A stretch of 49,784 bases of DNA from positions 1 through 49,784 of IMG/VR virus record IMGVR_UViG_3300035660_000378; one strand, 5' to 3'. The notes under the pieces are model-generated. The model saw only the letters and a program-made list of their open reading frames with translations, had not been told where the DNA came from and did not search any database. The position numbers were made by a program, and so were the translations under genes. This DNA is from a virus. Positions 1 to 49,784 of the stretch are shown here, in pieces; position 1 is the stretch's first letter; every line of letters starts with the position of its first letter.

Positions 1-186
1 CAGACACTTTGTAGTAACTTTCTCGACCCGATTTTCCATTCGAGAAAATAATTGTTCTGCCAAAGATTGGTAATGATCCCGGCATCGACCCTGAGGAGGC
101 ATCGCCATTAAGACCATCCCATTACCATAAACAGTTCCATCACCTATCAATGCCCCGCAGAATTGAATAAACTCTCTGCTGGCAGG
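1..186. repeat. Terminal direct repeat, left copy (assembly overlap of a circular genome)
   Basis: Bases 1-186 repeat bases 49599-49784. One difference was seen: position 59 is G here and the matching position 49657 is A. Joining the copies gives a 49,598-bp circle in which the portal/intein reading frame continues without a break. This is therefore best read as the overlap of a circular or circularly permuted genome, not as a biological terminal repeat, although a short exact terminal redundancy cannot be excluded from sequence alone. Confidence 0.93.
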
Positions 187-543
187 ACTTCCGTCTGGTA
201 AATCCAACCCCCCGCTGTCCGGATATGACTTTGGCTGAACAATGTAATCACCAGTTTGCAAGTCATCAATAGTTTTCCAGGCACAAGAAGCATTCCTGTA
301 TAAATTGGATGTTTTGGAATTGCCACATATCCGAACCATCACGGGGTGATTTCCACTTGCCCGTAACGTCCGGTTCTTCGTCCTGACTAGATAAATATCC
401 TTTATCCCGGTTTCTTGTAATCGCTTTACCTGTCTTAGACATAGTTTGCCATTCTCGAAACTCCACACAATAGTTCCGGGTTGAATGTCCACTATACGTA
501 CCGGTCCGCCAATAGTGCTTAGCATTGCCGTCGCAGGCAAGCA
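1..543 (-). mobile_element. Portal intein, N-terminal splicing domain and first LAGLIDADG motif
   Basis: The intein begins at Cys1 (codon 543-541) with CLPATAML. It shows the N-terminal splicing blocks, with a TLRASGNHPV block B at about residues 59-68. The first LAGLIDADG-type motif is FCGALIGDGTV at about residues 128-138. The remainder lies at 49598-48852; the total is 1290 nt or 430 residues, an exact codon multiple across the contig ends. By eye it is more AT-rich than the surrounding portal coding sequence, as expected for an acquired homing element. Homing endonuclease inteins spread by cutting intein-free copies of the same conserved site. Confidence 0.93.
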
Positions 544-1515
544 TCGCATCAGTCCCAATCTGGATCCAATCAGGATTGGCGGCACACGTATTGCCGAAAG
601 TATACGCGACTCGTTTCGCTCATCCAAAGTTGAGAACCCCATCTCGTCAAAGGTCAACCCGATCCTCTGGTATTCGCCGCCCTGGTCAAGCACCCCAGGT
701 TTGTACCAGTTTTCCGCCCCGCCGTAAATTTCAAGCCATCGTTCCCGGATTTCGTTTATGATTTTGGAGTTCAATGGCACATTGAATTTCAGCAACCCTG
801 CTATGATCGCTCCTTTCCGGAAGAACACAGCCAGAAACTTCGTGACCAGGTTGTCCACGTCCACGGACTGTCCCGCAGGTATCAGTGGCGGCATCCCATA
901 GCCCATCCCGTCCAGCGGGTCCGCCGGGTTGGGGAACTTCACGTGCCCCACATCCTCCGCAAGCATGGGAGTGCCGTCGCTCATCCCCTTGCCCTCAGGC
1001 ACATAGACGAATCCGATGATCTTCTTCTTGTCCCTCGAGGGGACAATGTAAGTACGTAGGGGATTCAGGGGCCACATGGCAGAAGGGCATCCCCGTTCCG
1101 CCCCCTGCCGGTCATAGTAGGTATAGGCGTTTCCGGTAAGGTTCAGGTAGATTGTCTGCACCATCATGTACTCCCGCCATGACATCGACGGGTTGGGCCT
1201 CATACAGAGATTGGCGAGCGGGTGGTCGTCTGGCAACCGTTCCGGCTTCTCGGTCTCCCCGATATAGGCCTTGACCGGGACCGACGCCAGCGCCAGCGCT
1301 TTGTACATTACCGCCGAGTAAACCAGGGCGTTGACGTCATAACCCTCGGTAAAATAAGCCTGTTCGTCGATCGCCTTCCAGGCGGGCTGATCCATCCTAT
1401 ACTCAGGCCACACGTAGGGCATCGCCTTCCCGCTCCGGTCGATCCTGACGATCTGGTTCTGGCTTCCAATCCGAAAGGCGGACATTGCCGCCCGCATCCT
1501 GTCGGTAAGTTTCAT
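1..1515 (-). CDS. Portal protein, N-extein plus first part of its intein (continues at 49598)
   Basis: This is the 5' part of the HK97-type portal gene. The portal forms the dodecameric ring at the capsid vertex through which DNA is packaged and to which connector proteins bind. The ATG at 1515 follows a GAGGTGAT-type ribosome binding site, 12 bases after the TerL stop. The N-extein (1515-544) is 324 residues. It ends in the conserved portal motif VPPILIGSRLGLMR, after which Cys1 of an intein begins (543-541). Across the circular junction the frame runs on to 48330, giving a 927-residue precursor. Removing the 430-residue intein leaves a 497-residue portal, a normal size for the family. The order TerS-TerL-portal-gp7-protease-capsid is the classic packaging and head module. 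Confidence 0.93.
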   Translation of the reverse strand, partial: MKLTDRMRAAMSAFRIGSQNQIVRIDRSGKAMPYVWPEYRMDQPAWKAIDEQAYFTEGYDVNALVYSAVMYKALALASVPVKAYIGETEKPERLPDDHPLANLCMRPNPSMSWREYMMVQTIYLNLTGNAYTYYDRQGAERGCPSAMWPLNPLRTYIVPSRDKKKIIGFVYVPEGKGMSDGTPMLAEDVGHVKFPNPADPLDGMGYGMPPLIPAGQSVDVDNLVTKFLAVFFRKGAIIAGLLKFNVPLNSKIINEIRERWLEIYGGAENWYKPGVLDQGGEYQRIGLTFDEMGFSTLDERNESRILSAIRVPPILIGSRLGLMRCLPATAMLSTIGGPVRIVDIQPGTIVWSFENGKLCLRQVKRLQETGIKDIYLVRTKNRTLRASGNHPVMVRICGNSKTSNLYRNASCAWKTIDDLQTGDYIVQPKSYPDSGGLDLPDGSPASREFIQFCGALIGDGTVYGNGMVLMAMPPQGRCRDHYQSLAEQLFSRMENRVEKVTTKCL

Positions 1516-7640: not shown

Positions 7641-7664
7641 AGAGCCGCCATTTCTGGCGGCTCT
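7641..7664 (-). terminator. Terminator hairpin at the end of the TIGR-like array
   Basis: The hairpin has a 9-bp perfect stem, AGAGCCGCC with GGCGGCTCT, and a 6-base loop. On the minus strand it is followed by ATTTATTT, a reasonable U-rich tail. It closes the Tas-like gene plus array transcription unit just before the late promoter. On the plus strand it is followed only by TTTGC. Confidence 0.65.
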
Positions 7665-7669
7665 TTGCT

Positions 7670-7993
7670 GCTTCGCTTTCGTTCTCCGGGTTGCTCTTTA
7701 AATACGGCTCGCTTTTCGTAACTGGGTTTCTCTTCCCCAATGGCTCGCTTCCGTTTGGTGGGTTGCTCTCAGTTTACGGCTCGCTTCCTGATAACGGGTT
7801 ACTCTGATTGGACGGCTCGCTTATTTACAATGGGTTGCTCTGAGACTGTGGCTCGCTTCCATTTCGTGGGTTACTCTAGTCCAATGGCTCGCTTATTCCT
7901 CTTGGGTTGCTTGATGATAATGGCTCGCTTCCCTAACATGGGTTTCTCGGTGCTCTTGGCTCGCTTATCTCTCCTGGGTTACTTTATCGAAAC
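7670..7993 (-). repeat. TIGR-like array: 36-bp period, two alternating constant 9-mers with unique 9-mer spacers
   Basis: Nine units of 36 bases are built as GGCTCGCTT, 9 variable, GGGTTnCTC, 9 variable (plus strand). GGCTCGCTT is invariant at 7706, 7742, 7778, 7814, 7850, 7886, 7922 and 7958; the first copy at 7670 is degenerate. GGGTTnCTC occurs at 7688, 7724, 7760, 7796, 7832, 7868, 7904, 7940 and 7976, with a variable sixth base. Spacer pairs: tcgttctcc/tttaaatac; ttcgtaact/ttccccaat; ccgtttggt/tcagtttac; cctgataac/tgattggac; atttacaat/tgagactgt; ccatttcgt/tagtccaat; attcctctt/gatgataat; ccctaacat/ggtgctctt; atctctcct/tatcgaaac. All 18 are distinct. This matches the published TIGR design (36-nt guide RNAs with two 9-nt spacers). 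Strand is inferred from the adjacent Tas-like gene and the terminator; the array overlaps the last codons of that gene. Confidence 0.88.
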
Positions 7994-8674
7994 GGCTGAC
8001 CAGCCAAACTCCTCCGGCGTGTATTCATGCTCATGTCCAAGTTTTTCATGGACATACGGCGCACGGACATCCAAACCTTCCGTCTGACGCCAGACCAGCC
8101 ATAGATGGGACAACCAGATTTTGATCATCTTTCGCATGGAAGCATTGTGCTGATGACCCTTTGTCCAATCCGGTCGGTTCGCCTCATAATAGGCACGGGC
8201 GTCGTCATATATGCGCCGATAAGGACTGTCTGACTTCAGGAACGATGAACCAACCAAATAGCAGGTTGTTTTCAGGCGGATATTATAATGCAGTTTTTCG
8301 CCTTTGGCGAGTCTCTCCCGCGTTCCGTCGATGACCGCATACCCTGCATACCGCCAAAGGGCGCTGATGGTATCAGCTTCCCGGATATCAATCATGCAGA
8401 CTACCTTTGCCGCCAGCATGGGGCCAACCCCCTTGACCTCTATCATGCGATCGACAATTTCCAGTCCCTTCACCGCCTGTCGGATATCGCCATCCAACTC
8501 AGCCTCCAGCTCATTGAAACGATGAAGCCAGCGCTCCAGAAGTTCCTGCGATCCATTAGATGGGACATCCACTCCACGTTCAACAGCGCCGATCCGGTTC
8601 GAAAATGCAACCCGGCTCTTCTGAATAGTTCGATCCCTCAAATCAATTAACGATCTCAAAATATTTTCGTCCAT
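7979..8674 (-). CDS. Tas-like (TasA-type) Nop/IS110 C-terminal domain protein
   Basis: The 231-residue protein matches the C-terminal Transposase_20 region of IS110/IS116/IS902 transposases. A coiled-coil helix pair (about residues 45-75) is followed by the helix-hairpin-helix IEVKGVGPMLAAKV, then ALWRYAGYAVIDG and a helical, basic end. The N-terminal DEDD (RuvC-like) half is absent. So is the PSxxxSG-type catalytic serine motif expected after the AGY segment, so it is probably not a transposase. IS110 C-terminal domains and box C/D Nop domains are the relatives of Tas proteins, which bind dual-spacer guide RNAs. The adjoining 36-bp array makes TIGR-Tas the best reading, with no RuvC or HNH nuclease (TasA-like). 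The ATG at 8674 has AAAGGAG upstream. What it does to its target without a nuclease is unknown. Confidence 0.82.
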   Translation of the reverse strand: MDENILRSLIDLRDRTIQKSRVAFSNRIGAVERGVDVPSNGSQELLERWLHRFNELEAELDGDIRQAVKGLEIVDRMIEVKGVGPMLAAKVVCMIDIREADTISALWRYAGYAVIDGTRERLAKGEKLHYNIRLKTTCYLVGSSFLKSDSPYRRIYDDARAYYEANRPDWTKGHQHNASMRKMIKIWLSHLWLVWRQTEGLDVRAPYVHEKLGHEHEYTPEEFGWSAVSIK

Positions 8675-8707
8675 AGCCTCTTATCTCCTTTTGTAAAATT
8701 CTGATTT

Positions 8708-9115: not shown

Positions 9116-9366
9116 GGAAGCGGCATCGTATCCGATAAAGGGGTGGTATTATAGATTGCCTCCCCAGATAAAAGTAAATCTAATTTCCCGTCGCCATTCA
9201 GGTCGATGAACTGATTGTGGATGTTCCGTATCTCCATCCCGTTGACCTCATCGGCTAGCACATTGAAATCGGACACCAATCCCTGTAATTTATCCGTGGC
9301 GACCCCCAGCGCGATAACCGTCAATCCGACCATCACGGCTAGCAGGATTTTCGTCTTTCTATCCAT
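9112..9366 (-). CDS. Small membrane-anchored protein with an EF-hand-like loop
   Basis: The 84-residue protein starts at the ATG at 9366, preceded by GGAGG; the upstream ATG at 9384 lies in the preceding gene's 3' end. Residues 6-24 (KILLAVMVGLTVIALGVAT) form a membrane segment. The outer part contains DLNGDGKLDLL, a dockerin/EF-hand or FG-GAP-like calcium-loop pattern. It overlaps both neighbours by a few bases, so it is co-translated with the 3D-like protein downstream. Function is unknown. Confidence 0.6.
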   Translation of the reverse strand: MDRKTKILLAVMVGLTVIALGVATDKLQGLVSDFNVLADEVNGMEIRNIHNQFIDLNGDGKLDLLLSGEAIYNTTPLSDTMPLP

Positions 9367-10126
9367 TTCGTTCCTCCTTTGCAATTAATCCAATAACTCC
9401 CTCCAGGTTTGCGCCCGTCAGGTCTGCGCCCGTCAGTTTTGCGATCCACAGGTCTGCGCCCCTCAGGTCTGCGTCCGTCAGGTCTGCGCCCCTCAGGTCT
9501 ACGACCCACAGGTTTGCGCCCCTCAGGTCTGCGTCCCTCAGGTTTGCGCCCGTCAGGTTTGCGCCCGGCAGGTATGCGCCCCACAGGTTTGCGCCCGTCA
9601 GGTTTGCGCCCGGCAGATATGCGCCCCTCAGGTTTGCGCCCGTCAGGTTTGCGCCCCTCAGGTTTGCGCCCGGCAGGTATGCGCCCCTCAGGTCTGCGTC
9701 CGTCAGGTCTGCGCCCGTCAGGTTTGCGACCCACAGGTTTGCGTCCCTCAGGTCTGCGCCCGTCAGGTCTGCGCCCGTCAGGTCTGCGCCCACACACCAA
9801 CCCATTCTAATTAATCGCCAAAATACCCTATACCGGATAATCCGCAACCGGAGTCGGCGACAGCCCAATTTTTTATCAGATTCACCTATAAGTCCATCCC
9901 ATTCTACCCACCAAGGATGCCAATTTTCGGGTGCATATTCAGCAGATAATTTTTTCATCACATGCCAACGCCCTGGCCCACAATCTTTTCCATCTGGGTC
10001 TGCAGGATTTGGATGTTCAAACCAGGGTCCCCATTTTTCGCCTGGACGGGGCAACGGATACTGTGTTTCAACACCATTATAAGATGTTGATCCGTAAGCA
10101 TTAAGAAATTTAAATCCTCTGTTCAT
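9359..10126 (-). CDS. Pentapeptide-repeat protein with a distinct N-terminal domain
   Basis: The start is the ATG at 10126 with AAAGGAG nearby. Residues 1 to about 105 form a Trp- and Pro-rich domain (GEKWGPWFEHPNP, NWHPWWVEWDGL) ending in the basic RRLRLRIIRY. Residues about 118-245 are some 25 tandem A(D/N)LxG units, which fold as a right-handed quadrilateral beta-helix. Family members include DNA-gyrase-protecting and DNA-mimic proteins, but many have no known function. At the DNA level the repeat is a 15/30-base tandem array (about 9400-9800), so copy number may drift. Neighbours are small membrane proteins. Confidence 0.8.
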   Translation of the reverse strand: MNRGFKFLNAYGSTSYNGVETQYPLPRPGEKWGPWFEHPNPADPDGKDCGPGRWHVMKKLSAEYAPENWHPWWVEWDGLIGESDKKLGCRRLRLRIIRYRVFWRLIRMGWCVGADLTGADLTGADLRDANLWVANLTGADLTDADLRGAYLPGANLRGANLTGANLRGAYLPGANLTGANLWGAYLPGANLTGANLRDADLRGANLWVVDLRGADLTDADLRGADLWIAKLTGADLTGANLEGVIGLIAKEERNG

Positions 10127-10373
10127 TTTTCGACTCCTTTTCTGCAATTTTTGCAGGTCGGACATCCTCACATGCGTACGCGTGCCTTGGCAAGATGAAT
10201 TTACTGAACTCGACCAGGCAGTTAATCACAAATATTGGTTCATTATCCACCGATGGGTTCAGAATTACCGTTTCCGGTTCTCTGCCGAACTTCTGGCGGA
10301 ATAGTTGCATTGCCTCCTCCACCGCCTGTTGGGTGCTTTTGCCGTTGCACATATAGCCTATCTGGTCAACCAT
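10110..10373 (-). CDS. Conserved-type hypothetical phage protein
   Basis: The 87-residue protein starts MVDQIGYMCNGKST and contains QQAVEEAMQLFRQKFGREPETVILNP, a helix followed by a strand pattern that looks like a small soluble alpha/beta domain. It ends with a Lys/Glu-rich tail overlapping the start region of the pentapeptide-repeat gene. No motif identifies a function. Confidence 0.55.
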   Translation of the reverse strand: MVDQIGYMCNGKSTQQAVEEAMQLFRQKFGREPETVILNPSVDNEPIFVINCLVEFSKFILPRHAYACEDVRPAKIAEKESKNEQRI

Positions 10374-10583: not shown

Positions 10584-10675
10584 CGGTATTTCCCCCATTC
10601 CGCCCAGGCCAGGCAGCCCCAACTCAAAATCAGGATTAGAATGTACCATAGCGCTTCGCTCCAGGTATGGGTCAT
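10580..10675 (-). CDS. 31-residue membrane peptide
   Basis: A very small ORF begins at the ATG at 10675, with GGAGG eight bases upstream (shared with the 3' end of the parB-like gene). It starts MTHTWSEALWYILIL and has one hydrophobic, Trp-rich segment before ending EWGKYR. Its start overlaps the parB-like stop (ATGA) and its stop overlaps the next start (ATGA). This double coupling supports a real gene despite the size. Function is unknown. Confidence 0.55.
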   Translation of the reverse strand: MTHTWSEALWYILILILSWGCLAWAEWGKYR

Positions 10676-11484
10676 TTTGCGCCTCCTTTTAGCACCACCT
10701 CAAAATTCATCCATGACTTTTCGCCCAATCCGGGCGTTTTTATAAACGCCTTAAAGATGTCGTCCAGGGAATAAAGCGGATCCGGTTCGCGGTTCAGGAA
10801 ACTACCCATCCCCGCAAATGCCTCCGCCGTGGCTTCGACTGCCCTGGCGGACTTGATTTTGTGGACATCCTCGCCCGTCAGTTTCCCGGTCTGGTTCAGG
10901 ATTGCCGCCGCCTGCTCCTGGCGGGCTTTCGGCTCGTGCGTCAGAGCTTGTAGGGTGTTTAAGGCGACCTTGCCCTCCTGCGCCGCCGTGACCAAGTCGT
11001 CTGGAAGGGTCAAAAGGCGCATCCGCTTCTTGACCGTCCCGACAGGAAGCCCGCAGGTCTCCGCTATCAGGCTCGGGGCAGGCATCTGCCCCTGCTTATC
11101 CATATATTCCTTGACAATATCCGTTATTGCCTTGGTTTCCGCCAGGGGATTGTTCGACCGGGTGTAGTTGGCATCAAGGGTCAGTACAGCGCTTTCCAGC
11201 GATCCCGCCTTGTAGGTTTTAATTGGAACGGTGGGTATTCCTAGTTTCCTGGCGACCGCCAGTCTGCGCCGCCCATCTCGGAGGGTCAGCTTCCCGTCCC
11301 CATTCTGGGTAAACATAATCGCCTCGCGGATGCCAAACAACTTGATCGACCGAACCAAAATCGCCGACGGCTTGGGACAGTTGTCCAGGGCGTGGGGGTC
11401 TTCCTGCAAAATCTGCTCGACCGTCCACCGACCCGTCACGGGCGGGATATCCTTATCGAACTGGATTTCCAATTGCTCACTCAT
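10672..11484 (-). CDS. ParB/Spo0J-like N-terminal domain protein
   Basis: The 270-residue protein begins MSEQLEIQFDKDIPP. Residues about 40-100 hold LVRSIKLFGIREAIMFTQ and LRDGRRRLAVARKLG, with the GxRR box of the ParB/sulfiredoxin fold. A central HTH follows (APSLIAETCGLPVGTVKKRMRLLTL). Phage ParB-like proteins act as DNA-binding CTPases, nucleases or transcription factors. No ParA or obvious parS cluster was seen, so partitioning is not supported. The start at 11484 overlaps the upstream stop by 8 bases. It sits with recT in the early leftward genes. Confidence 0.8.
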   Translation of the reverse strand: MSEQLEIQFDKDIPPVTGRWTVEQILQEDPHALDNCPKPSAILVRSIKLFGIREAIMFTQNGDGKLTLRDGRRRLAVARKLGIPTVPIKTYKAGSLESAVLTLDANYTRSNNPLAETKAITDIVKEYMDKQGQMPAPSLIAETCGLPVGTVKKRMRLLTLPDDLVTAAQEGKVALNTLQALTHEPKARQEQAAAILNQTGKLTGEDVHKIKSARAVEATAEAFAGMGSFLNREPDPLYSLDDIFKAFIKTPGLGEKSWMNFEVVLKGGAK

Positions 11485-12256
11485 CCACCACCTCCACGGG
11501 CAGTTTCGCTCCTGCCAACTTCTTGAGTTTCTTTTCGTGTGTCCCGCCCTTTTCATCCCGAACGACCACCAGTCGGTGGATCGGTAGGCCGATAAAAGCG
11601 CCCGGGAACCAAGTTTCCTCAACCAGATTGTAAAGTCCCGGATTCCATATTGCCTTATAGGCAAACGACGGACATTGAATTTCAACGACGCCACCTAATC
11701 CCATTGTTTCCGGCTTTTGATCTGGCGGCAAAGCCAGTTGCCAGAATATCCCAGGGCATCGTGCTTTCGGGACGTGCGGGTAAGCGCCTGTATAGACCAG
11801 TGGGACCCTCGGATGCTCCTTTGGACACACATCCCATCGATAACCCAATTCACACACCGACCAGAAATTAGTACATTGATCCAAAATTTCCGGGTAACCA
11901 TAATATCCAACTGTGTGAACGGCGATCAACTTCGACTTTATGTCCAGCGTCGCATACTGCTCTTTATTCAGTTCCAGGCGCTGGCTCATCCCAAACCGGC
12001 GAACTTCCTCGATCCAATCCGTCGGGTTGGGGTAGAATTTCGACCCGATCCAGTCGAAAACCATCGTCGTCCCTTGCACTTTATGCAGGACGGACGACCT
12101 GGGCGTCAGCCCAAGCTTTTGGCAGTCGACCTTGACCAGCGGATCGAACAGGTATGCCTCGATGGGCAATTCTTTTAAGGAAAGCCTGCACTCGGCGTAT
12201 ACGCCGCCTTCCTGGCGGGTCCCGCATCCCCTTTCAACTGGTATTGCTCCAAACAT
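11477..12256 (-). CDS. Hypothetical protein between recT and parB-like genes
   Basis: This 259-residue soluble protein begins MFGAIPVERGCGTRQEGG. It contains several Cys residues (for example QCTNFWSVCELGYRWDVCPKE) and aromatic-rich strands. No motif or signal is recognised. The ATG has AAAGGAGG upstream, directly after a strong hairpin (12272-12295), so its translation may be modulated. It overlaps the parB-like gene, and the neighbours suggest a role in DNA metabolism. Confidence 0.6.
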   Translation of the reverse strand: MFGAIPVERGCGTRQEGGVYAECRLSLKELPIEAYLFDPLVKVDCQKLGLTPRSSVLHKVQGTTMVFDWIGSKFYPNPTDWIEEVRRFGMSQRLELNKEQYATLDIKSKLIAVHTVGYYGYPEILDQCTNFWSVCELGYRWDVCPKEHPRVPLVYTGAYPHVPKARCPGIFWQLALPPDQKPETMGLGGVVEIQCPSFAYKAIWNPGLYNLVEETWFPGAFIGLPIHRLVVVRDEKGGTHEKKLKKLAGAKLPVEVVDE

Positions 12257-14679: not shown

Positions 14680-15810
14680 TTATATTTCAGGCGTAAACAT
14701 CTCCACGCCTAAAGGCGGGAGCTTTTGTCCTAACCCGTGAGGGTCGAAGACCATCGGCAGGTTTACGGCTGCCCTGGCGGAGATATTCACCGCCGCAACA
14801 GTATCCGCAGGCGCAGAGTAGCCACAGGATACACAGGAGAACAAACTTTGAGAGACACGATTGGCTTTATCAATACAACCACATTTCGGGCAAGTCCGGG
14901 ACGTGTTACGTGGATCAACCAAAAACACCGGTATCCCAACACGTTCAGCTTTGTAACTGATATATTGGCGAAGTTGATAGAACGACCAATTGGCATGTCT
15001 CGCTCTCTGCTTGCGTCGAACAGGAACCTCGCGGATACCGCTCAAATCTTCCAGAGCGATAGCCCGTCGAGTGTCTTGCGCTTTTTCAACGAGACATTTG
15101 CTGATTGTGTGGTTGGTAATACTTTGAAACCGTGCTTGTCTGCCAGATATTTTCTTAAGCTTACGTTTGGCGGACTTCGAGCCGTTACGCTGAAGATTGC
15201 GGCGGCGATGTTCAAACTTACGACGGTTCACTTCGATAGATGCGCCGCTGAAATTCTCCCCATCAGAATCAGAAGCGATGTTCACGATACCAAGGTCAAT
15301 ACCCAGCACGCCCTCAATGTCAATCGGTTCGGGTGTTTCCACGTCGCAAGTTGTGAGCAAGTAAAACTTCCTTTTGACCAGGCACAAGTCGCTTTCCCCA
15401 CGTTGCCCATTCAGCAATTCCATTTGTCGTTTGGCACAAGTAAAAGGGATATTTTCCCGACCCGTGACTGTCCAGATGGAAACAAACTTCTTTTCGATGT
15501 GCCAAGTCAGAATGCGATTATCAAAAGCGATTGCCCCGTAAGGCTGGAATGTGTGCTTTGTTTTATTATTAAGTTTGTAAGCATCTGCCACTTTGGAGAT
15601 ACAACGGACAATAACCTGTGCAGTAAGTTGAAACATTTCTTTGACCGCATAGTAAGTAAGTTTATGCAAAGGGAATTGTCTAAACGTTTTATTTTCCCAT
15701 CCGCAGGCACTGATGTAATTACAGGCAGCATTCGCCACTTCGAGGGTTTGACGAAGAGCTTGCGCTTGTTCAGGCGTGGGCAGGAGTTTTATTTGAGCAG
15801 TCAATTTCAT
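14680..15810 (-). CDS. tnpB: IS200/IS605-family TnpB, RNA-guided nuclease
   Basis: TnpB is a compact RuvC nuclease guided by an RNA (omega/reRNA) made from the 3' end of its own element; it cuts the empty donor site and so helps the element persist. The 376-residue protein (start MKLTAQIKLLPTP; an in-frame start nine codons upstream is less likely) has RuvC-I GIDLGIVN, RuvC-II ALEDLSGIRE, a zinc ribbon with CPKC and CVSC, and RuvC-III ADTVAAVNISA. The three catalytic acidic positions appear intact. No TnpA is adjacent. A TATACT -10 lies just before the start. Length is within the normal range. Confidence 0.92.
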   Translation of the reverse strand: MKLTAQIKLLPTPEQAQALRQTLEVANAACNYISACGWENKTFRQFPLHKLTYYAVKEMFQLTAQVIVRCISKVADAYKLNNKTKHTFQPYGAIAFDNRILTWHIEKKFVSIWTVTGRENIPFTCAKRQMELLNGQRGESDLCLVKRKFYLLTTCDVETPEPIDIEGVLGIDLGIVNIASDSDGENFSGASIEVNRRKFEHRRRNLQRNGSKSAKRKLKKISGRQARFQSITNHTISKCLVEKAQDTRRAIALEDLSGIREVPVRRKQRARHANWSFYQLRQYISYKAERVGIPVFLVDPRNTSRTCPKCGCIDKANRVSQSLFSCVSCGYSAPADTVAAVNISARAAVNLPMVFDPHGLGQKLPPLGVEMFTPEI

Positions 15811-15890
15811 ATTGTTAGTATAACACAATTTCACCATATTGAAAAGAATGGAGGCAACGCTTCCTCCCCATTGCTAAAGCAAGGGGTATC
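14685..15890 (-). mobile_element. IS605-type element with TnpB only (ends approximate)
   Basis: A hairpin at 15866-15886 (CCCCA/TTGC with GCAA/GGGG) marks the left end upstream of tnpB. A hairpin at 14701-14721 (CTCC-GCC with GGC-GGAG) marks the right end, inside the last tnpB codons. Both have the A/T-loop, GC-stem look of IS605 end hairpins. The omega RNA is expected from the region around 14690-14850, with its guide taken from the bases just outside the right end (below about 14690). Exact cleavage sites cannot be fixed without the empty site. Confidence 0.65.
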
Positions 15891-16328: not shown

Positions 16329-16922
16329 ATGCCAGATGAACTCATAAGAAGGTACGGAATTATAACCGCAGCCGTCTGGGGTAAATTCTGGCGTTATTCT
16401 AATTTGTCTAGATCGAGCAAAATCACTAAAAAAAGAATTGCTGGCGAATTAGGATTATCAGTACAGGCGATTTATCCTCATATCAAAAATCTTATCAATG
16501 ATGGTTATCTTGTCGACATAACTCCTAATGAGAAAGATTCTTCATACATCCTAACTGACAAAATAATTACCAATCTTGATCTTGCAGAATATAAGGGATA
16601 TATCGAAGACGCATTTGTTATTGGGATGTGCCAAAAATGTGGGGTCGCAATTTATAACTGTATCGATCATGTTTGCTTTACCGAATCTAGTAATGGAAAT
16701 TCCCGCTCAAGTTCCTGGGGGAAATACAGTCGTCGCCTAAAGCAATCAAGCCATTGTGAATATTGTCATGTTCTCCTAACCCCGCGGAATCGTACTATAG
16801 ATCATATCGTTCCCGTCAGCAAGAATGGAAACAATAAAATGGACAACCTTGTTGCTTGTTGCAAATCCTGTAATTCCATAAAGCACAACAAAGAACTATT
16901 CCTGCTTGAATGTGGAGGATAA
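16329..16922 (+). CDS. Winged-helix plus HNH endonuclease fusion
   Basis: In this 197-residue protein, residues about 10-75 form a winged helix (RIAGELGLSVQAIYPHIKNLINDGYL) like that of phage replication initiators. The C-terminus is an HNH nuclease: CEYC, then TIDHIVPVSKNGNNKMDNLVACCKSCN, with zinc Cys pairs and the His residues expected for the beta-beta-alpha metal site. By eye it is more AT-rich than its neighbours, which suggests acquisition. It ends at the start of the replication initiator gene (GGAGG inside its last codons). It is probably a free-standing homing endonuclease that captured or replaced an initiator domain; a replication role is possible. Confidence 0.78.
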   Translation: MPDELIRRYGIITAAVWGKFWRYSNLSRSSKITKKRIAGELGLSVQAIYPHIKNLINDGYLVDITPNEKDSSYILTDKIITNLDLAEYKGYIEDAFVIGMCQKCGVAIYNCIDHVCFTESSNGNSRSSSWGKYSRRLKQSSHCEYCHVLLTPRNRTIDHIVPVSKNGNNKMDNLVACCKSCNSIKHNKELFLLECGG

Positions 16923-43167: not shown

Positions 43168-43275
43168 AAATACTTCCTGTAGTATTCCCTGAAAATCCTG
43201 CGGCGGTCAGGCGGTCAGGATTCCGCTTTTCGGGAGCGACCCTATGCCGCCGCAATTAGGACAATTATTGTCCGG
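43168..43275 (-). promoter_or_regulatory. Structured leader between capsid and decoration genes
   Basis: This 108-base stretch holds three inverted repeats: GGACAAT-A-ATTGTCC (43259-43273), GCGGCGG/CCGCCGC flanking about 40 bases, and AATACT/AGTATT near the next start. Together they could form an RNA that terminates, processes or protects the capsid transcript. No promoter of good quality was seen here. Confidence 0.4.
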
Positions 43276-46365: not shown

Positions 46366-46583
46366 TTGAACTCCGACGGGTGCCCGGGGCGTGGCCTACC
46401 CAACTCGATTACCTTATGGGGCGTGGCCAGCAGGATCGCGATAGCCGCATCATGGCACATCGCAAGGTAGTCCCGGATCGCCTGCTCATCCTGCTCATTT
46501 TGCAGGCGGTCGGCGATCGCTGACGCCACCTGGTTGTTAGGGAGTAGTGGTTTCAACTCGTCCAGTAGACTTTGCTTGGTCAT
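46362..46583 (-). CDS. Small hypothetical protein following gp7-like gene
   Basis: The 73-residue protein starts MTKQSLLDELKPLL and is helical (ASAIADRLQNEQDEQAIRDYL). The start overlaps the gp7-like stop and the stop overlaps the next gene (ATGA), so it is part of the head operon. Not recognised. Confidence 0.55.
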   Translation of the reverse strand: MTKQSLLDELKPLLPNNQVASAIADRLQNEQDEQAIRDYLAMCHDAAIAILLATPHKVIELGRPRPGHPSEFK

Positions 46584-48349
46584 TCTATTGTCCTTCCCGT
46601 TGCCTGGTCTATTTCAGGAGGTAGTACAGGCAAAATCGAACATCTGCAATTGTGTAATATAATTCCATTTGCAAGATAAAATCCCGATTCGGTTTGGAGG
46701 TTATAAACATGACCCGCAAAAGAATAGATATCAATATTGGTAATCTGGTCAGCCTGTACCTTTCTGGAATTTCGGAGAAGGAATTGTCGAATCGCTTTCA
46801 TGTCGCCCGGACCGCCATTCATCCCCGTCTGATTTCCGCCGGCATCAAACCCCGTAACCGGAGTGAGGCTAACTTTATCAAGATGGCCAAAATGACGCCA
46901 GAACAGCGAAAGGCAAATGCCCAAAATGCCCATATTGCCCGCCACGCCAAAGGTGATTCCCTTGAATCCATTGAAATGCGTAATATTTCCCGTGCCATCA
47001 ATGCCCAAAATAAAACCTGGATGATTGGCAAATACGAAACTGAGGTTATTAGTATGTTTTCGCGGGCCGGAATTATTTATATTCCCCAATTTCCTATTTA
47101 CCATTACAACATTGACATAGCCTGCCATCCCGTCGCCGTGGAAGTCTGGAATAGCGGAAACCATCCTTTTACTAATGCCCACAATCTTGAGCGTACGAAA
47201 TATCTCCTCGACCATGATTGGCATGTTACCTATATCTGGATTACCCATCTTCATCCTCTTACCCAGGATTCCTGTAATCAGGTAATCCAATTTATTCAGT
47301 TTGCCCGCCGCAACCCATCCATCCCTCGTGAGTATCGGGTGGTTCGGGGTGACGGTGAGTCGGTAGCCTTGGGCAGTGGTAATATCAATGACATTGCCAT
47401 AGTAGTAGCGACGCGTTGCCGCAAGCACGTTTCCAGCAGGTAAAACTTCCGTTCCTTTAATTACACAATTAATCGCCTCCTCGGGTGGCAAAGCAGGGTC
47501 ACCAGGACAATCAGCAGGATAACCGCCAATATCAAATTTCTCGTCTATTCCTACTACCTGTCCATTAGCTTCTGCATGAGTATCTCTAGTCCGACCATCT
47601 CCCATTGTTGCCAGCCATTCCTTTTTCTGCACATTCCAATCTCTGAATATCTCCATACTACCGGCTGCGGAAGCCCTTATAGTTTCCGTTCTCGCGATTA
47701 ATTCCGTCCGGTAAGCCGGCGTCCGGTCAGTGAACCACTGCCAATCAGGATCATCAGGAGTGGTGCCGGATATATACCTTTCAAACAATGAATCCAGTTG
47801 ATCCTGGATCGCCGGAATTGACGACCCCTCTGCCTGCGCCCTGGCCATGATCTGGGCGATATTGTCTCGCGTCGTTTCGTTCACCTTCTGGGCGAATACC
47901 AGTAGATATTTATTAAACCAATTCCTGGCGTAAAGGTTCTGGATATTGAAAGCAATCCCCGTCTCAAGGCTCCACTGTTCCCCTTGGTCGGTCACGATCC
48001 CGACCACGGCGGGGAGAAACAATTCGCGCCAGGCCTCTTCGCCATTTTCCTGCAAATATGCCAGGGTGTCATCAATCAGGTTTGCCCAGTCCACCGACGC
48101 CTTTCGCTCCAATGCATCCCGATATCCTTTGTGTAGCAGTCCCAAAATATCCCGTTTCTGCTTCTCAAAAGCCTTTATCGCCAATTTCTTGAACGTCGGC
48201 TGCCACTTTTGGGAAATCTTGTCGTGGTTGCGCCAGGCGCGCGCCTTGGCCTCCTTCGACCAGCCCTTTGATTCAATCCATCCCAGGGCGACCGAGACCT
48301 TGATGATCTGCTTTACCGCAAAGACAAGGTTATTTCGGGCTTCCAGCAT
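46580..48349 (-). CDS. SPP1 gp7/Mu gpF-like head morphogenesis protein containing an intein
   Basis: This is a 589-residue precursor. The N-extein (294 residues) includes GTTPDDPDWQWF, RTELIARTETIRASAAGSMEIF and WLATMGDGRTRDTHAEANGQ, ending at PPEEAIN. The C-extein is only 22 residues (CRCSILPVLPPEID...). Joined, they restore the family motif PxEAINCRC, giving a 316-residue mature protein. The family is packaged in or attached to the portal and helps head assembly. The start overlaps the portal 3' end by 20 bases. Confidence 0.9.
   Translation of the reverse strand: MLEARNNLVFAVKQIIKVSVALGWIESKGWSKEAKARAWRNHDKISQKWQPTFKKLAIKAFEKQKRDILGLLHKGYRDALERKASVDWANLIDDTLAYLQENGEEAWRELFLPAVVGIVTDQGEQWSLETGIAFNIQNLYARNWFNKYLLVFAQKVNETTRDNIAQIMARAQAEGSSIPAIQDQLDSLFERYISGTTPDDPDWQWFTDRTPAYRTELIARTETIRASAAGSMEIFRDWNVQKKEWLATMGDGRTRDTHAEANGQVVGIDEKFDIGGYPADCPGDPALPPEEAINCVIKGTEVLPAGNVLAATRRYYYGNVIDITTAQGYRLTVTPNHPILTRDGWVAAGKLNKLDYLITGILGKRMKMGNPDIGNMPIMVEEIFRTLKIVGISKRMVSAIPDFHGDGMAGYVNVVMVNRKLGNINNSGPRKHTNNLSFVFANHPGFILGIDGTGNITHFNGFKGITFGVAGNMGILGICLSLFWRHFGHLDKVSLTPVTGFDAGGNQTGMNGGPGDMKAIRQFLLRNSRKVQADQITNIDIYSFAGHVYNLQTESGFYLANGIILHNCRCSILPVLPPEIDQATGRTIE
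46658..46663 (+). promoter_or_regulatory. Candidate -10 box for the antisense endonuclease gene
   Basis: A perfect TATAAT on the plus strand lies about 50 bases before the endonuclease ATG at 46709. The expected -35 position shows no good match. On the minus strand these bases encode part of the intein end block (GIIL). Confidence 0.35.
46709..47443 (+). CDS. Vsr/EDxHD-type homing endonuclease encoded antisense inside the intein
   Basis: The 244-residue protein starts at the ATG at 46709 with a perfect GGAGGT seven bases upstream (46696-46701). Residues about 10-45 form an HTH (LYLSGISEKELSNRFHVART) followed by a basic arm (PEQRKANAQNAHIARHAKG). Residues about 108-180 carry the nuclease core: KYETEV (E), YNIDIA (D), PVAVEVW and HNLERTKYLLDHDWHVTYIWIT, the pattern of the Vsr-like EDxHD homing endonuclease family. 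It covers about 90% of the intein on the other strand, so both strands are open. The last ~55 residues lie opposite the intein N-terminal splicing block and may be constrained only by it. Confidence 0.85.
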   Translation: MTRKRIDINIGNLVSLYLSGISEKELSNRFHVARTAIHPRLISAGIKPRNRSEANFIKMAKMTPEQRKANAQNAHIARHAKGDSLESIEMRNISRAINAQNKTWMIGKYETEVISMFSRAGIIYIPQFPIYHYNIDIACHPVAVEVWNSGNHPFTNAHNLERTKYLLDHDWHVTYIWITHLHPLTQDSCNQVIQFIQFARRNPSIPREYRVVRGDGESVALGSGNINDIAIVVATRCRKHVSSR

Positions 48350-49784
48350 CCTTTGCCTCCAAAAGCAAATCGGTCGCCCGCTTCAACTCGTTGGCCAAGG
48401 CCATGATCGCCTTACCGGTTGTCCCCGCCTGTTCTGCTTCCTGCCCGGCTTCAGGGATATTGCCTTCTTCTGGCGTCGGTGCGGGTTTCTCAGTCGTCAC
48501 TGTTTCGCCTGGGATTCCCGTTTCAATTTCCTCTTCCCCGACTTTACCGACCGGAATGAGGTTCATCGGCATGTAAATCATGTCGCCGTCTGGCAATTGC
48601 CCCACTTCCAGTCCAGTGATTACCGCTGCCTGATACTTACTTACCCCGTATCCGACTAGAGACGTGAATGCCGTCACCAGGGCCGGCGTGTCCTGGCGCA
48701 GGGCGGGGATGTCCGAATAGTCGTTCTTTACCCAGCCCCCGTCGTCGCTCTGCATGTAGTATTGGTGGTCGGTCTCGAACAGACTGGCCTCGCCCAGGGC
48801 GACGTCCTCCCAGAAGGCTTTCCTTGCCTCCTGGTAATTGGCGTAGGTCGAATTGTGAACCAGTATCCCATCAGCAATAAAGGAGTGTCCACCTTCTACT
48901 TCAATATCATAAACCGTTTCAACTGATTGTTTTTCTATGGAAACAACCTTATAAAAACCAAGATCGTCAGACAAGTCAGCCTTCTTTGCATCAAAGCTAT
49001 CTGGCTTATAACGTCCCAAGTTGGCATTAACTCTCTCGCGATACAGGGTATCTGCAAATGGGATTTGTGCTACTTGCCTTGCACTAGACGCCACAAAACT
49101 GTAATTGTGGTAAATCTCTTTTATCCCTCTTTGCGGCAAAACACTTGGGGAAAGTTGATCGTGCCGAATGTTACTGCATTGAATACCAGCAGATATCAAC
49201 AATTCGCGAACATCATAGGTAAGTAATTCATTACAAAATGCAAACTTGAGTACACCCCGTTTATCTATGCTCCCGTCGGTGTCCACCAATCCTGCGAGAA
49301 AATTCAACCGGAGCTCCCGCGAAAGACCATAAATCCAGTGTGGAATACGTTTAGTGTGTGCCCGTTCCCCAAGACCCAATGCCCTGAGATACTCCGCATT
49401 CTCGGACACTCTAAAATTAAAACTTCGAGGGCAATCTGTTATATGAACCGATCTGGAAACCGGAAGTAAGGTATCAACTTCTATCACTGGTAGATAAGAT
49501 AATTTGTAGGACGATTCATATTTGCATTCCTTACTGCAATAACGCCCGCGCCCATCTTCTACCCTGATCCTCCGAGTATGAATATCTTTACCGCAATGCA
49601 GACACTTTGTAGTAACTTTCTCGACCCGATTTTCCATTCGAGAAAATAATTGTTCTACCAAAGATTGGTAATGATCCCGGCATCGACCCTGAGGAGGCAT
49701 CGCCATTAAGACCATCCCATTACCATAAACAGTTCCATCACCTATCAATGCCCCGCAGAATTGAATAAACTCTCTGCTGGCAGG
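48330..49784 (-). CDS. Portal protein, rest of intein and C-extein (continues from position 1)
   Basis: This is the 3' part of the portal gene described at 1-1515. After the intein end (Asn codon at 48854-48852) the C-extein of 173 residues starts STYANYQEARKAFWEDV, the segment that in HK97-type portals directly follows the PPxLIG motif. The C-terminus is Glu/Pro/Thr-rich and likely flexible. The stop at 48330 lies within the start of the gp7-like gene. Bases 49599-49784 duplicate 1-186. Confidence 0.92.
   Translation of the reverse strand, partial: PASREFIQFCGALIGDGTVYGNGMVLMAMPPQGRCRDHYQSLVEQLFSRMENRVEKVTTKCLHCGKDIHTRRIRVEDGRGRYCSKECKYESSYKLSYLPVIEVDTLLPVSRSVHITDCPRSFNFRVSENAEYLRALGLGERAHTKRIPHWIYGLSRELRLNFLAGLVDTDGSIDKRGVLKFAFCNELLTYDVRELLISAGIQCSNIRHDQLSPSVLPQRGIKEIYHNYSFVASSARQVAQIPFADTLYRERVNANLGRYKPDSFDAKKADLSDDLGFYKVVSIEKQSVETVYDIEVEGGHSFIADGILVHNSTYANYQEARKAFWEDVALGEASLFETDHQYYMQSDDGGWVKNDYSDIPALRQDTPALVTAFTSLVGYGVSKYQAAVITGLEVGQLPDGDMIYMPMNLIPVGKVGEEEIETGIPGETVTTEKPAPTPEEGNIPEAGQEAEQAGTTGKAIMALANELKRATDLLLEAKDAGSPK
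48852..49784 (-). mobile_element. Portal intein, endonuclease and C-terminal splicing domain
   Basis: Here the LAGLIDADG endonuclease continues. Four Cys residues at about intein positions 180, 183, 202 and 206 (CLHC...CSKEC) form a zinc finger between the two LAGLIDADG motifs. The second motif is FLAGLVDTDGS near residues 281-291. C-terminal splicing blocks are VYDIEVEGGHSFIADGILVHN, with penultimate His and terminal Asn, before Ser+1. Both LAGLIDADG acidic residues are kept (ALIGDG and GLVDTDG), so the nuclease looks active. Confidence 0.92.
49599..49784. repeat. Terminal direct repeat, right copy
   Basis: This matches bases 1-186 except at 49657 (A here, G at 59). On the minus strand the difference changes one codon of the intein between GCA (Ala) and GTA (Val). 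It indicates two sequence variants or an assembly error at the join. Confidence 0.93.

What the first reader, a model, noticed from the sequence alone, without database searches (positions are those of the whole stretch)
7670..8674. TIGR-Tas-like RNA-guided locus without a nuclease domain
A 36-bp-period array (9 units, 18 distinct 9-nt spacers, two alternating 9-nt constant blocks) directly follows a 231-residue protein that corresponds only to the Nop-like C-terminal half of IS110 transposases. Seen: exact 9/9/9/9 spacing, adjacency, same probable strand, missing DEDD half and missing serine motif. Known: TIGR-Tas systems use about 36-nt RNAs with two 9-nt spacers that read both strands of a DNA target, and Tas proteins are related to IS110 and box C/D Nop proteins. 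Inferred: a TasA-type, nuclease-less version that may bind and silence DNA of rival phages, mobile elements or the host, or recruit another nuclease.
Basis: partly seen in the sequence, partly recalled or inferred. Interest (0 to 1): 0.96.

Follow-up and report, generated by a model that had tools for sequence, protein, structure and literature searches.

The report
Phage TIGR-TasA RNA-guided DNA-binding locus
This phage carries a nuclease-free member of the TIGR-Tas family of RNA-guided DNA-binding systems, a kind described in 2025; comparing its relatives shows that their guide arrays are replaced much faster than the surrounding phage DNA, a lead on how these systems evolve and what they are for.

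Summary
On the minus strand a 231-aa gene (7979-8674) runs into a 36-nt-period array (7673-7999): nine guides, 18 different 9-nt spacers, alternating 9-nt repeats (edge AAGCGAGCC, loop RAGNAACCC), truncated terminal edge repeats and an intrinsic terminator. The protein is a Tas: sequence and AlphaFold/Foldseek comparisons put solved TasH and TasR structures first, IS110-family recombinases far behind. It begins at the coiled coil and has no nuclease. This is TIGR-TasA, reported by Faure et al. (2025) as the commonest Tas, so a new member of a known kind.

Three additions. (1) The tasA stop codon lies inside the first tigRNA unit; in many relatives it overlaps or abuts the first edge repeat, so maturation of tigRNA 1 may clip the tas mRNA (inferred). 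(2) Between phages about 96% identical in flanking DNA fewer than half of the guides are retained, and at 85-93% 0-9 of 12-26; most retained guides differ by 0-1 base of 18, so arrays change by whole units. (3) No guide matched a paired target above permuted controls in related phages, 1.7 Mb of sibling phages or 1.5 Mb of a lysogenic host. RNA-guided blocking of DNA remains inferred.

The parts
7979..8674 (-). tasA, 231 aa, coiled coil plus Nop-like RNA-binding domain, no nuclease
   Evidence: phmmer to TasR 9mty 5.9e-26 and TasH 21kl 6.2e-24; AlphaFold2 pLDDT 92.6; Foldseek TasH 9w04 E 1.5e-12, TMq 0.87
7673..7999 (-). TIGR array: nine guides of 36 nt, alternating edge (AAGCGAGCC) and loop (RAGNAACCC) repeats with 18 distinct 9-nt spacers
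7994..7999 (-). 5' truncated edge repeat (TCAGCC) inside the tasA reading frame
   Evidence: same position in relatives
7976..7984 (-). first loop repeat AAGTAACCC, containing the tasA stop codon (7979-7981)
7641..7664 (-). intrinsic terminator (10-bp stem, then ATTTATTT) directly after the 3' truncated edge repeat
8686..8692 (-). ribosome binding site (AAAGGAG) of tasA
   Evidence: sequence

Best explanation
A phage-borne TIGR-TasA system. tasA and the array are transcribed together from the minus strand and end at the terminator at 7664-7641. The transcript is cut inside each edge repeat into nine 36-nt tigRNAs. A TasA dimer holds each tigRNA by its edge and loop repeats, and spacers A and B pair with opposite strands of one 18-bp DNA site. 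With no nuclease, the complex most likely bends and occupies the target and so blocks transcription or replication of a competing mobile element or a host gene. Shown: the gene, the array, the predicted fold, the truncated repeats and terminator, the lack of a nuclease, and fast guide turnover among relatives. Inferred from the published family: RNA processing, dimer, DNA binding. Inferred here: the blocking role, and that maturation of tigRNA 1 removes the tasA stop codon from its message and so limits TasA synthesis.
For: Closest solved structures by sequence and by fold are TasR and TasH complexes. Dual 9-nt repeats with 9-nt spacers, truncated end repeats and terminator match the published array anatomy. 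Box D and box C (AG...CC) are the same in edge and loop, and AG or TG agree between edge and loop across arrays (a set partly selected for AG). TasA plus a same-strand array recurs in many phages. Guides are renewed faster than flanking DNA, as expected if target choice is under selection. No nuclease recurs nearby. FpTasA binds 36-nt tigRNAs (PMC12045711).
Against: No natural target was found in any searched set. The published study saw no protection from phage or plasmid entry with TasR in E. coli and calls TasA function unclear. No RNA data exist for this phage.
Confidence: 0.62

Rival explanations
1. TasA is an RNA-guided DNA-bending or architectural factor for the phage itself, for example helping recombination, integration or segregation, and not a weapon against other DNA.
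For: Faure et al. propose that TasA may aid integrases and note TasA-ParB operons. The window has a ParB-like gene about 2 kb upstream (10672-11694) and RecT upstream, as do L002 and L005.
Against: No guide matches its own phage above control. Fast guide turnover is not expected for a fixed architectural site. ParB-like and RecT genes do not recur in most loci.
Confidence: 0.15
2. TasA guides a nuclease encoded elsewhere in the phage or host to the target, which is then cut.
For: The phage encodes an HNH protein (16329-16922) and a TnpB-like protein (14680-15837).
Against: In 33 neighbourhoods no nuclease recurs with tasA.
Confidence: 0.07
3. The system regulates host or phage RNA rather than DNA, as box C/D ribonucleoproteins do.
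For: Nop-domain proteins of box C/D particles act on RNA (established knowledge; PMC12045711).
Against: Closest relatives TasR and TasH bind DNA, and TasR had no activity on RNA substrates. No fibrillarin-like partner is seen.
Confidence: 0.08
4. The protein is a decayed IS110-family transposase and the array an unrelated tandem repeat.
For: Sub-threshold Transposase_20 match (E 0.21); PHROGs label the family transposase.
Against: Tas structures beat IS110-family structures by many orders of magnitude. Intact frames with 12 invariant residues across 28 relatives and recurrent same-strand arrays.
Confidence: 0.01

Closest known systems
TIGR-TasA (for example Flavonifractor plautii FpTIGR; Faure et al. 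2025, PMC12045711)
   Same: Solo Nop-domain protein, dual-repeat array with 9-nt spacers, 36-nt period, truncated end repeats, terminator, phage context
   Different: Repeat sequences; tasA stop codon inside the first guide unit (not described in the text read); not shown to be an operon with tasParB
TIGR-TasH (Salicola phage CGphi29) and TasR (Thermoproteota)
   Same: Homologous Nop and coiled-coil part (phmmer E 6e-24 and 6e-26; Foldseek E 1.5e-12 and 5e-10)
   Different: They carry HNH or RuvC nuclease domains; the window protein has none
IS110-family bridge-RNA recombinases (IS621, ISCro4)
   Same: Related Nop-like RNA-binding fold (best Foldseek E 6.5e-3)
   Different: No DEDD/RuvC domain, no transposase signature above cut-off, guide array instead of one bridge RNA
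Type IV and V-M CRISPR systems
   Same: Works like them if it blocks DNA without cutting (inference)
   Different: Unrelated proteins and guides; two 9-nt spacers per guide on opposite strands

Membership tests
TIGR-Tas | Nop-domain protein homologous to Tas | tested here: met
TIGR-Tas | Adjacent array of two alternating 8-12-nt repeats with 9-nt spacers | tested here: met
TIGR-Tas | Truncated edge repeats at both ends, then a rho-independent terminator | tested here: met
[quoted passage not shown]
   AG...CC in all window edge and loop repeats except the truncated last edge; AG/AG or TG/TG across most arrays
TIGR-Tas | Processing to 36-nt tigRNAs bound by the protein | not testable with these tools
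   needs small-RNA sequencing
TIGR-Tas | tigRNA-guided DNA binding by both spacers | not testable with these tools
   no natural target found; needs binding assay
TasA subtype | No HNH or RuvC domain | tested here: met
   the phmmer match to TasH starts at its residue 71, after the HNH part; no Pfam nuclease
TasA-TasParB operon variant | tasParB in one operon with tasA | tested here: inconclusive
   ParB-like gene on the same strand but about 2 kb upstream with other genes between; not recurrent in relatives
IS110 transposase | N-terminal DEDD domain and Transposase_20 domain above cut-off | tested here: not met

The most novel reading that the evidence does not exclude
TIGR-TasA is a nuclease-free silencing system whose guide repertoire is renewed by gain, loss and exchange of whole tigRNA units between phages, driven by changing targets, and whose expression is self-limited because maturation of tigRNA 1 cuts the tasA message at or before its stop codon.
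Probability: 0.3. Interest if true: 0.78.

Novelty: new member of a known kind. Interest (0 to 1): 0.45.

Why it matters
The original study left open how TIGR arrays arise and change and what TasA targets. The relatives gathered here give a first quantitative picture: arrays turn over as whole units within phages only 4-15% diverged, most retained guides stay nearly unchanged, and guides do not match sibling phages. That argues for selection on guide content and against sibling phages as direct targets, and it names close phage pairs in which acquisition can be studied. The recurring fusion of the tas stop codon with the first guide unit gives a simple, testable regulatory hypothesis.

Tried and rejected
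Target search for the parsed guides, both strand orders, gaps up to 7 nt, against the phage itself and related contigs, 1.47 Mb of the Ornatilinea apprima genome and 1.74 Mb of sibling phages: no excess over permuted spacer pairs. In one search the loci L170-L249 had been fetched by the pattern of one window guide, so their hits were set aside. One search was spoiled by short spacers in the guide list and was replaced.

Whole-collection scan for one window guide: 81 stretches with hits spread evenly over gaps 0, 1 and 2, almost none in contigs resembling this phage, so chance. Whole-collection scan for a guide retained in three phages: excess at gap 1, but the hits read as common coding strings in unrelated contexts, so most likely codon bias rather than a target.

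Conserved partner gene or nuclease near tasA: none. Known defence family for TasA: none in PADLOC. Rfam match for the array: none. TasA relative in plasmids: none.

Full report
OBSERVATION. On the minus strand the gene 7979-8674 (231 aa) runs into a 36-nt-period array. Written 5' to 3' on that strand, the array starts with a truncated edge repeat (TCAGCC), continues with nine units of spacer A, loop repeat, spacer B and edge repeat, and ends with a truncated edge repeat (AAGCGA) followed by a 10-bp terminator-like hairpin. All 18 nine-nt spacers differ. One refinement: the array begins inside the gene. The codons GTT TCG ATA are spacer A of guide 1, and the stop codon TAA is part of the first loop repeat AAG-TAA-CCC.

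PROTEIN. Pfam sees only a sub-threshold Transposase_20 match (E 0.21). phmmer against the PDB finds TasR 9mty (5.9e-26) and TasH 21kl (6.2e-24). An AlphaFold2 model from 28 natural sequences has mean pLDDT 92.6, and Foldseek ranks TasH complexes first (9w04, E 1.5e-12, TM 0.87 over the query), with TasR at 5e-10 and IS621 and ISCro4 recombinases at 6.5e-3 and worse. The phmmer match to TasH starts at its residue 71, so the HNH part has no counterpart. It is a Tas protein without a nuclease, i.e. TasA. Faure et al. 2025 define TasA, call it the effector most commonly found, and show that FpTasA binds 36-nt tigRNAs (PMC12045711).

RELATIVES. Viral contigs gave 15 relatives with the single protein and 35 with a profile, most with a 36-nt array next to tasA. 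The closest shares 70% of TasA residues. The genomes around them share little else with the window, and the four longer terminase-relative records checked lack TasA, so the locus behaves as an exchangeable cassette. A cellular genome, Ornatilinea apprima (Chloroflexota, Anaerolineae by general knowledge), holds a 59% identical TasA with array and terminator; 3 of 396 genomes of its class have a strong match, so the window phage may infect a similar host (inference).

PARTNERS. In 33 neighbourhoods only tasA and the array recur broadly. RecT appears in three, including the window, and a DnaB-like protein in four; no nuclease recurs. This speaks against a recruited neighbour nuclease.

STOP CODON AND FIRST GUIDE. 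In the wider set all 110 arrays parsed in loci with a tas gene lie on the tas strand. In the window, L072 and L083 the stop codon lies in the first loop repeat; in L002, L004, L006, L008 and L058 the first box C lies inside the tas frame; in L010, L016, L017, L067, L069, L075 and L085 the stop abuts or forms the truncated edge repeat (read by eye). In the wider set 13 of 40 downstream arrays have the stop codon directly followed by GCC or a variant, as in TGAGCC and TAAGCC (six of these 13 belong to one phage family). [quoted passage not shown] Maturation of guide 1 should therefore cut the tas message at or before its stop codon. Autoregulation is an inference; simple compaction is the alternative.

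ARRAY TURNOVER. With arrays masked, flanking DNA of related loci was compared. At 99-100% flank identity essentially all guides in the shared stretch are the same. At 95.8% (L296/L326) 6 of 20 guides are exact, 3 near, 2 intermediate, and 9 differ from every guide of the other array at 7 or more of 18 bases, the level seen between unrelated arrays. At 93.2% (L290/L350) none of 15 is exact and 2 are near. At 85-92% 0-9 of 12-26 are retained. Retained guides mostly differ by 0-1 base even where flanks differ by 12% (L296/L346). They are scattered through the array, mostly in the same order, with occasional relocation. L013/L014 (tasA 92% identical) share about 5 guides of 12 and 19, and L006/L008 keep one spacer B with a changed spacer A. 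Arrays therefore change mainly by whole-unit gain, loss or exchange and not at one end only as in CRISPR. Caveats: flank identities rest on 1.6-6 kb, some contigs are fragments, and local recombination could import whole arrays.

TARGETS. With the published rule (spacers A and B pair with opposite strands of adjacent DNA) both orders and several gaps were tested. There was no excess over permuted spacer pairs in related contigs, in 1.47 Mb of Ornatilinea apprima, or for 138 guides against 1.74 Mb of sibling phages (no exact match; one-mismatch counts within control). Two whole-collection scans gave hits explained by chance and by codon bias. Metagenomes, where targets most likely lie, could not be searched.

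MECHANISM AND VERDICT. The best-supported reading is RNA-guided, nuclease-free binding of 18-bp DNA sites, probably to block transcription or replication of foreign DNA; the target class is open. The window locus is a new member of a known kind. What is new here is the turnover pattern and the gene-array fusion, both testable.

Noticed in passing
window 14680-15837 (-): Lone TnpB-like protein (Cas12f1-like TNB domain) with an apparently intact D-E-D set by eye, so the phage carries two kinds of potentially RNA-guided protein.
   Followed up: partly
window 46580-49784 and 1-1515 (-): Intein-splicing domains in two neighbouring head genes: a Mu F-like protein and the reading frame that runs off the right end; that frame may join the portal gene running off the left end if the genome is circular.
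   Followed up: no
window 9359-10171 (-): Pentapeptide-repeat protein encoded by about 26 copies of a 15-bp repeat, upstream of tasA on the same strand.
   Followed up: no
window 43187-43252 (-): Rfam int-alpA RNA above its gathering score.
   Followed up: no
L013 2801-3477 and L014 10751-11173: Several of the guides shared by these two close phages have irregular loop repeats, as if unusable units persist while regular ones are replaced; one pair only.
   Followed up: partly
L320, L346 arrays: Some arrays hold two guides that differ at only 1-3 of 18 bases (e.g. ATCGACGTT with ACTTTGGAT or ACTTGGGAT), suggesting unit duplication with divergence or tracking of target variants.
   Followed up: no
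L017 4950-6200 (Microcystis phage Mvi-JY20): A named phage with host Microcystis viridis carries a TasA annotated only as hypothetical protein, with a TIGR array directly after it: a tractable system for experiments.
   Followed up: partly
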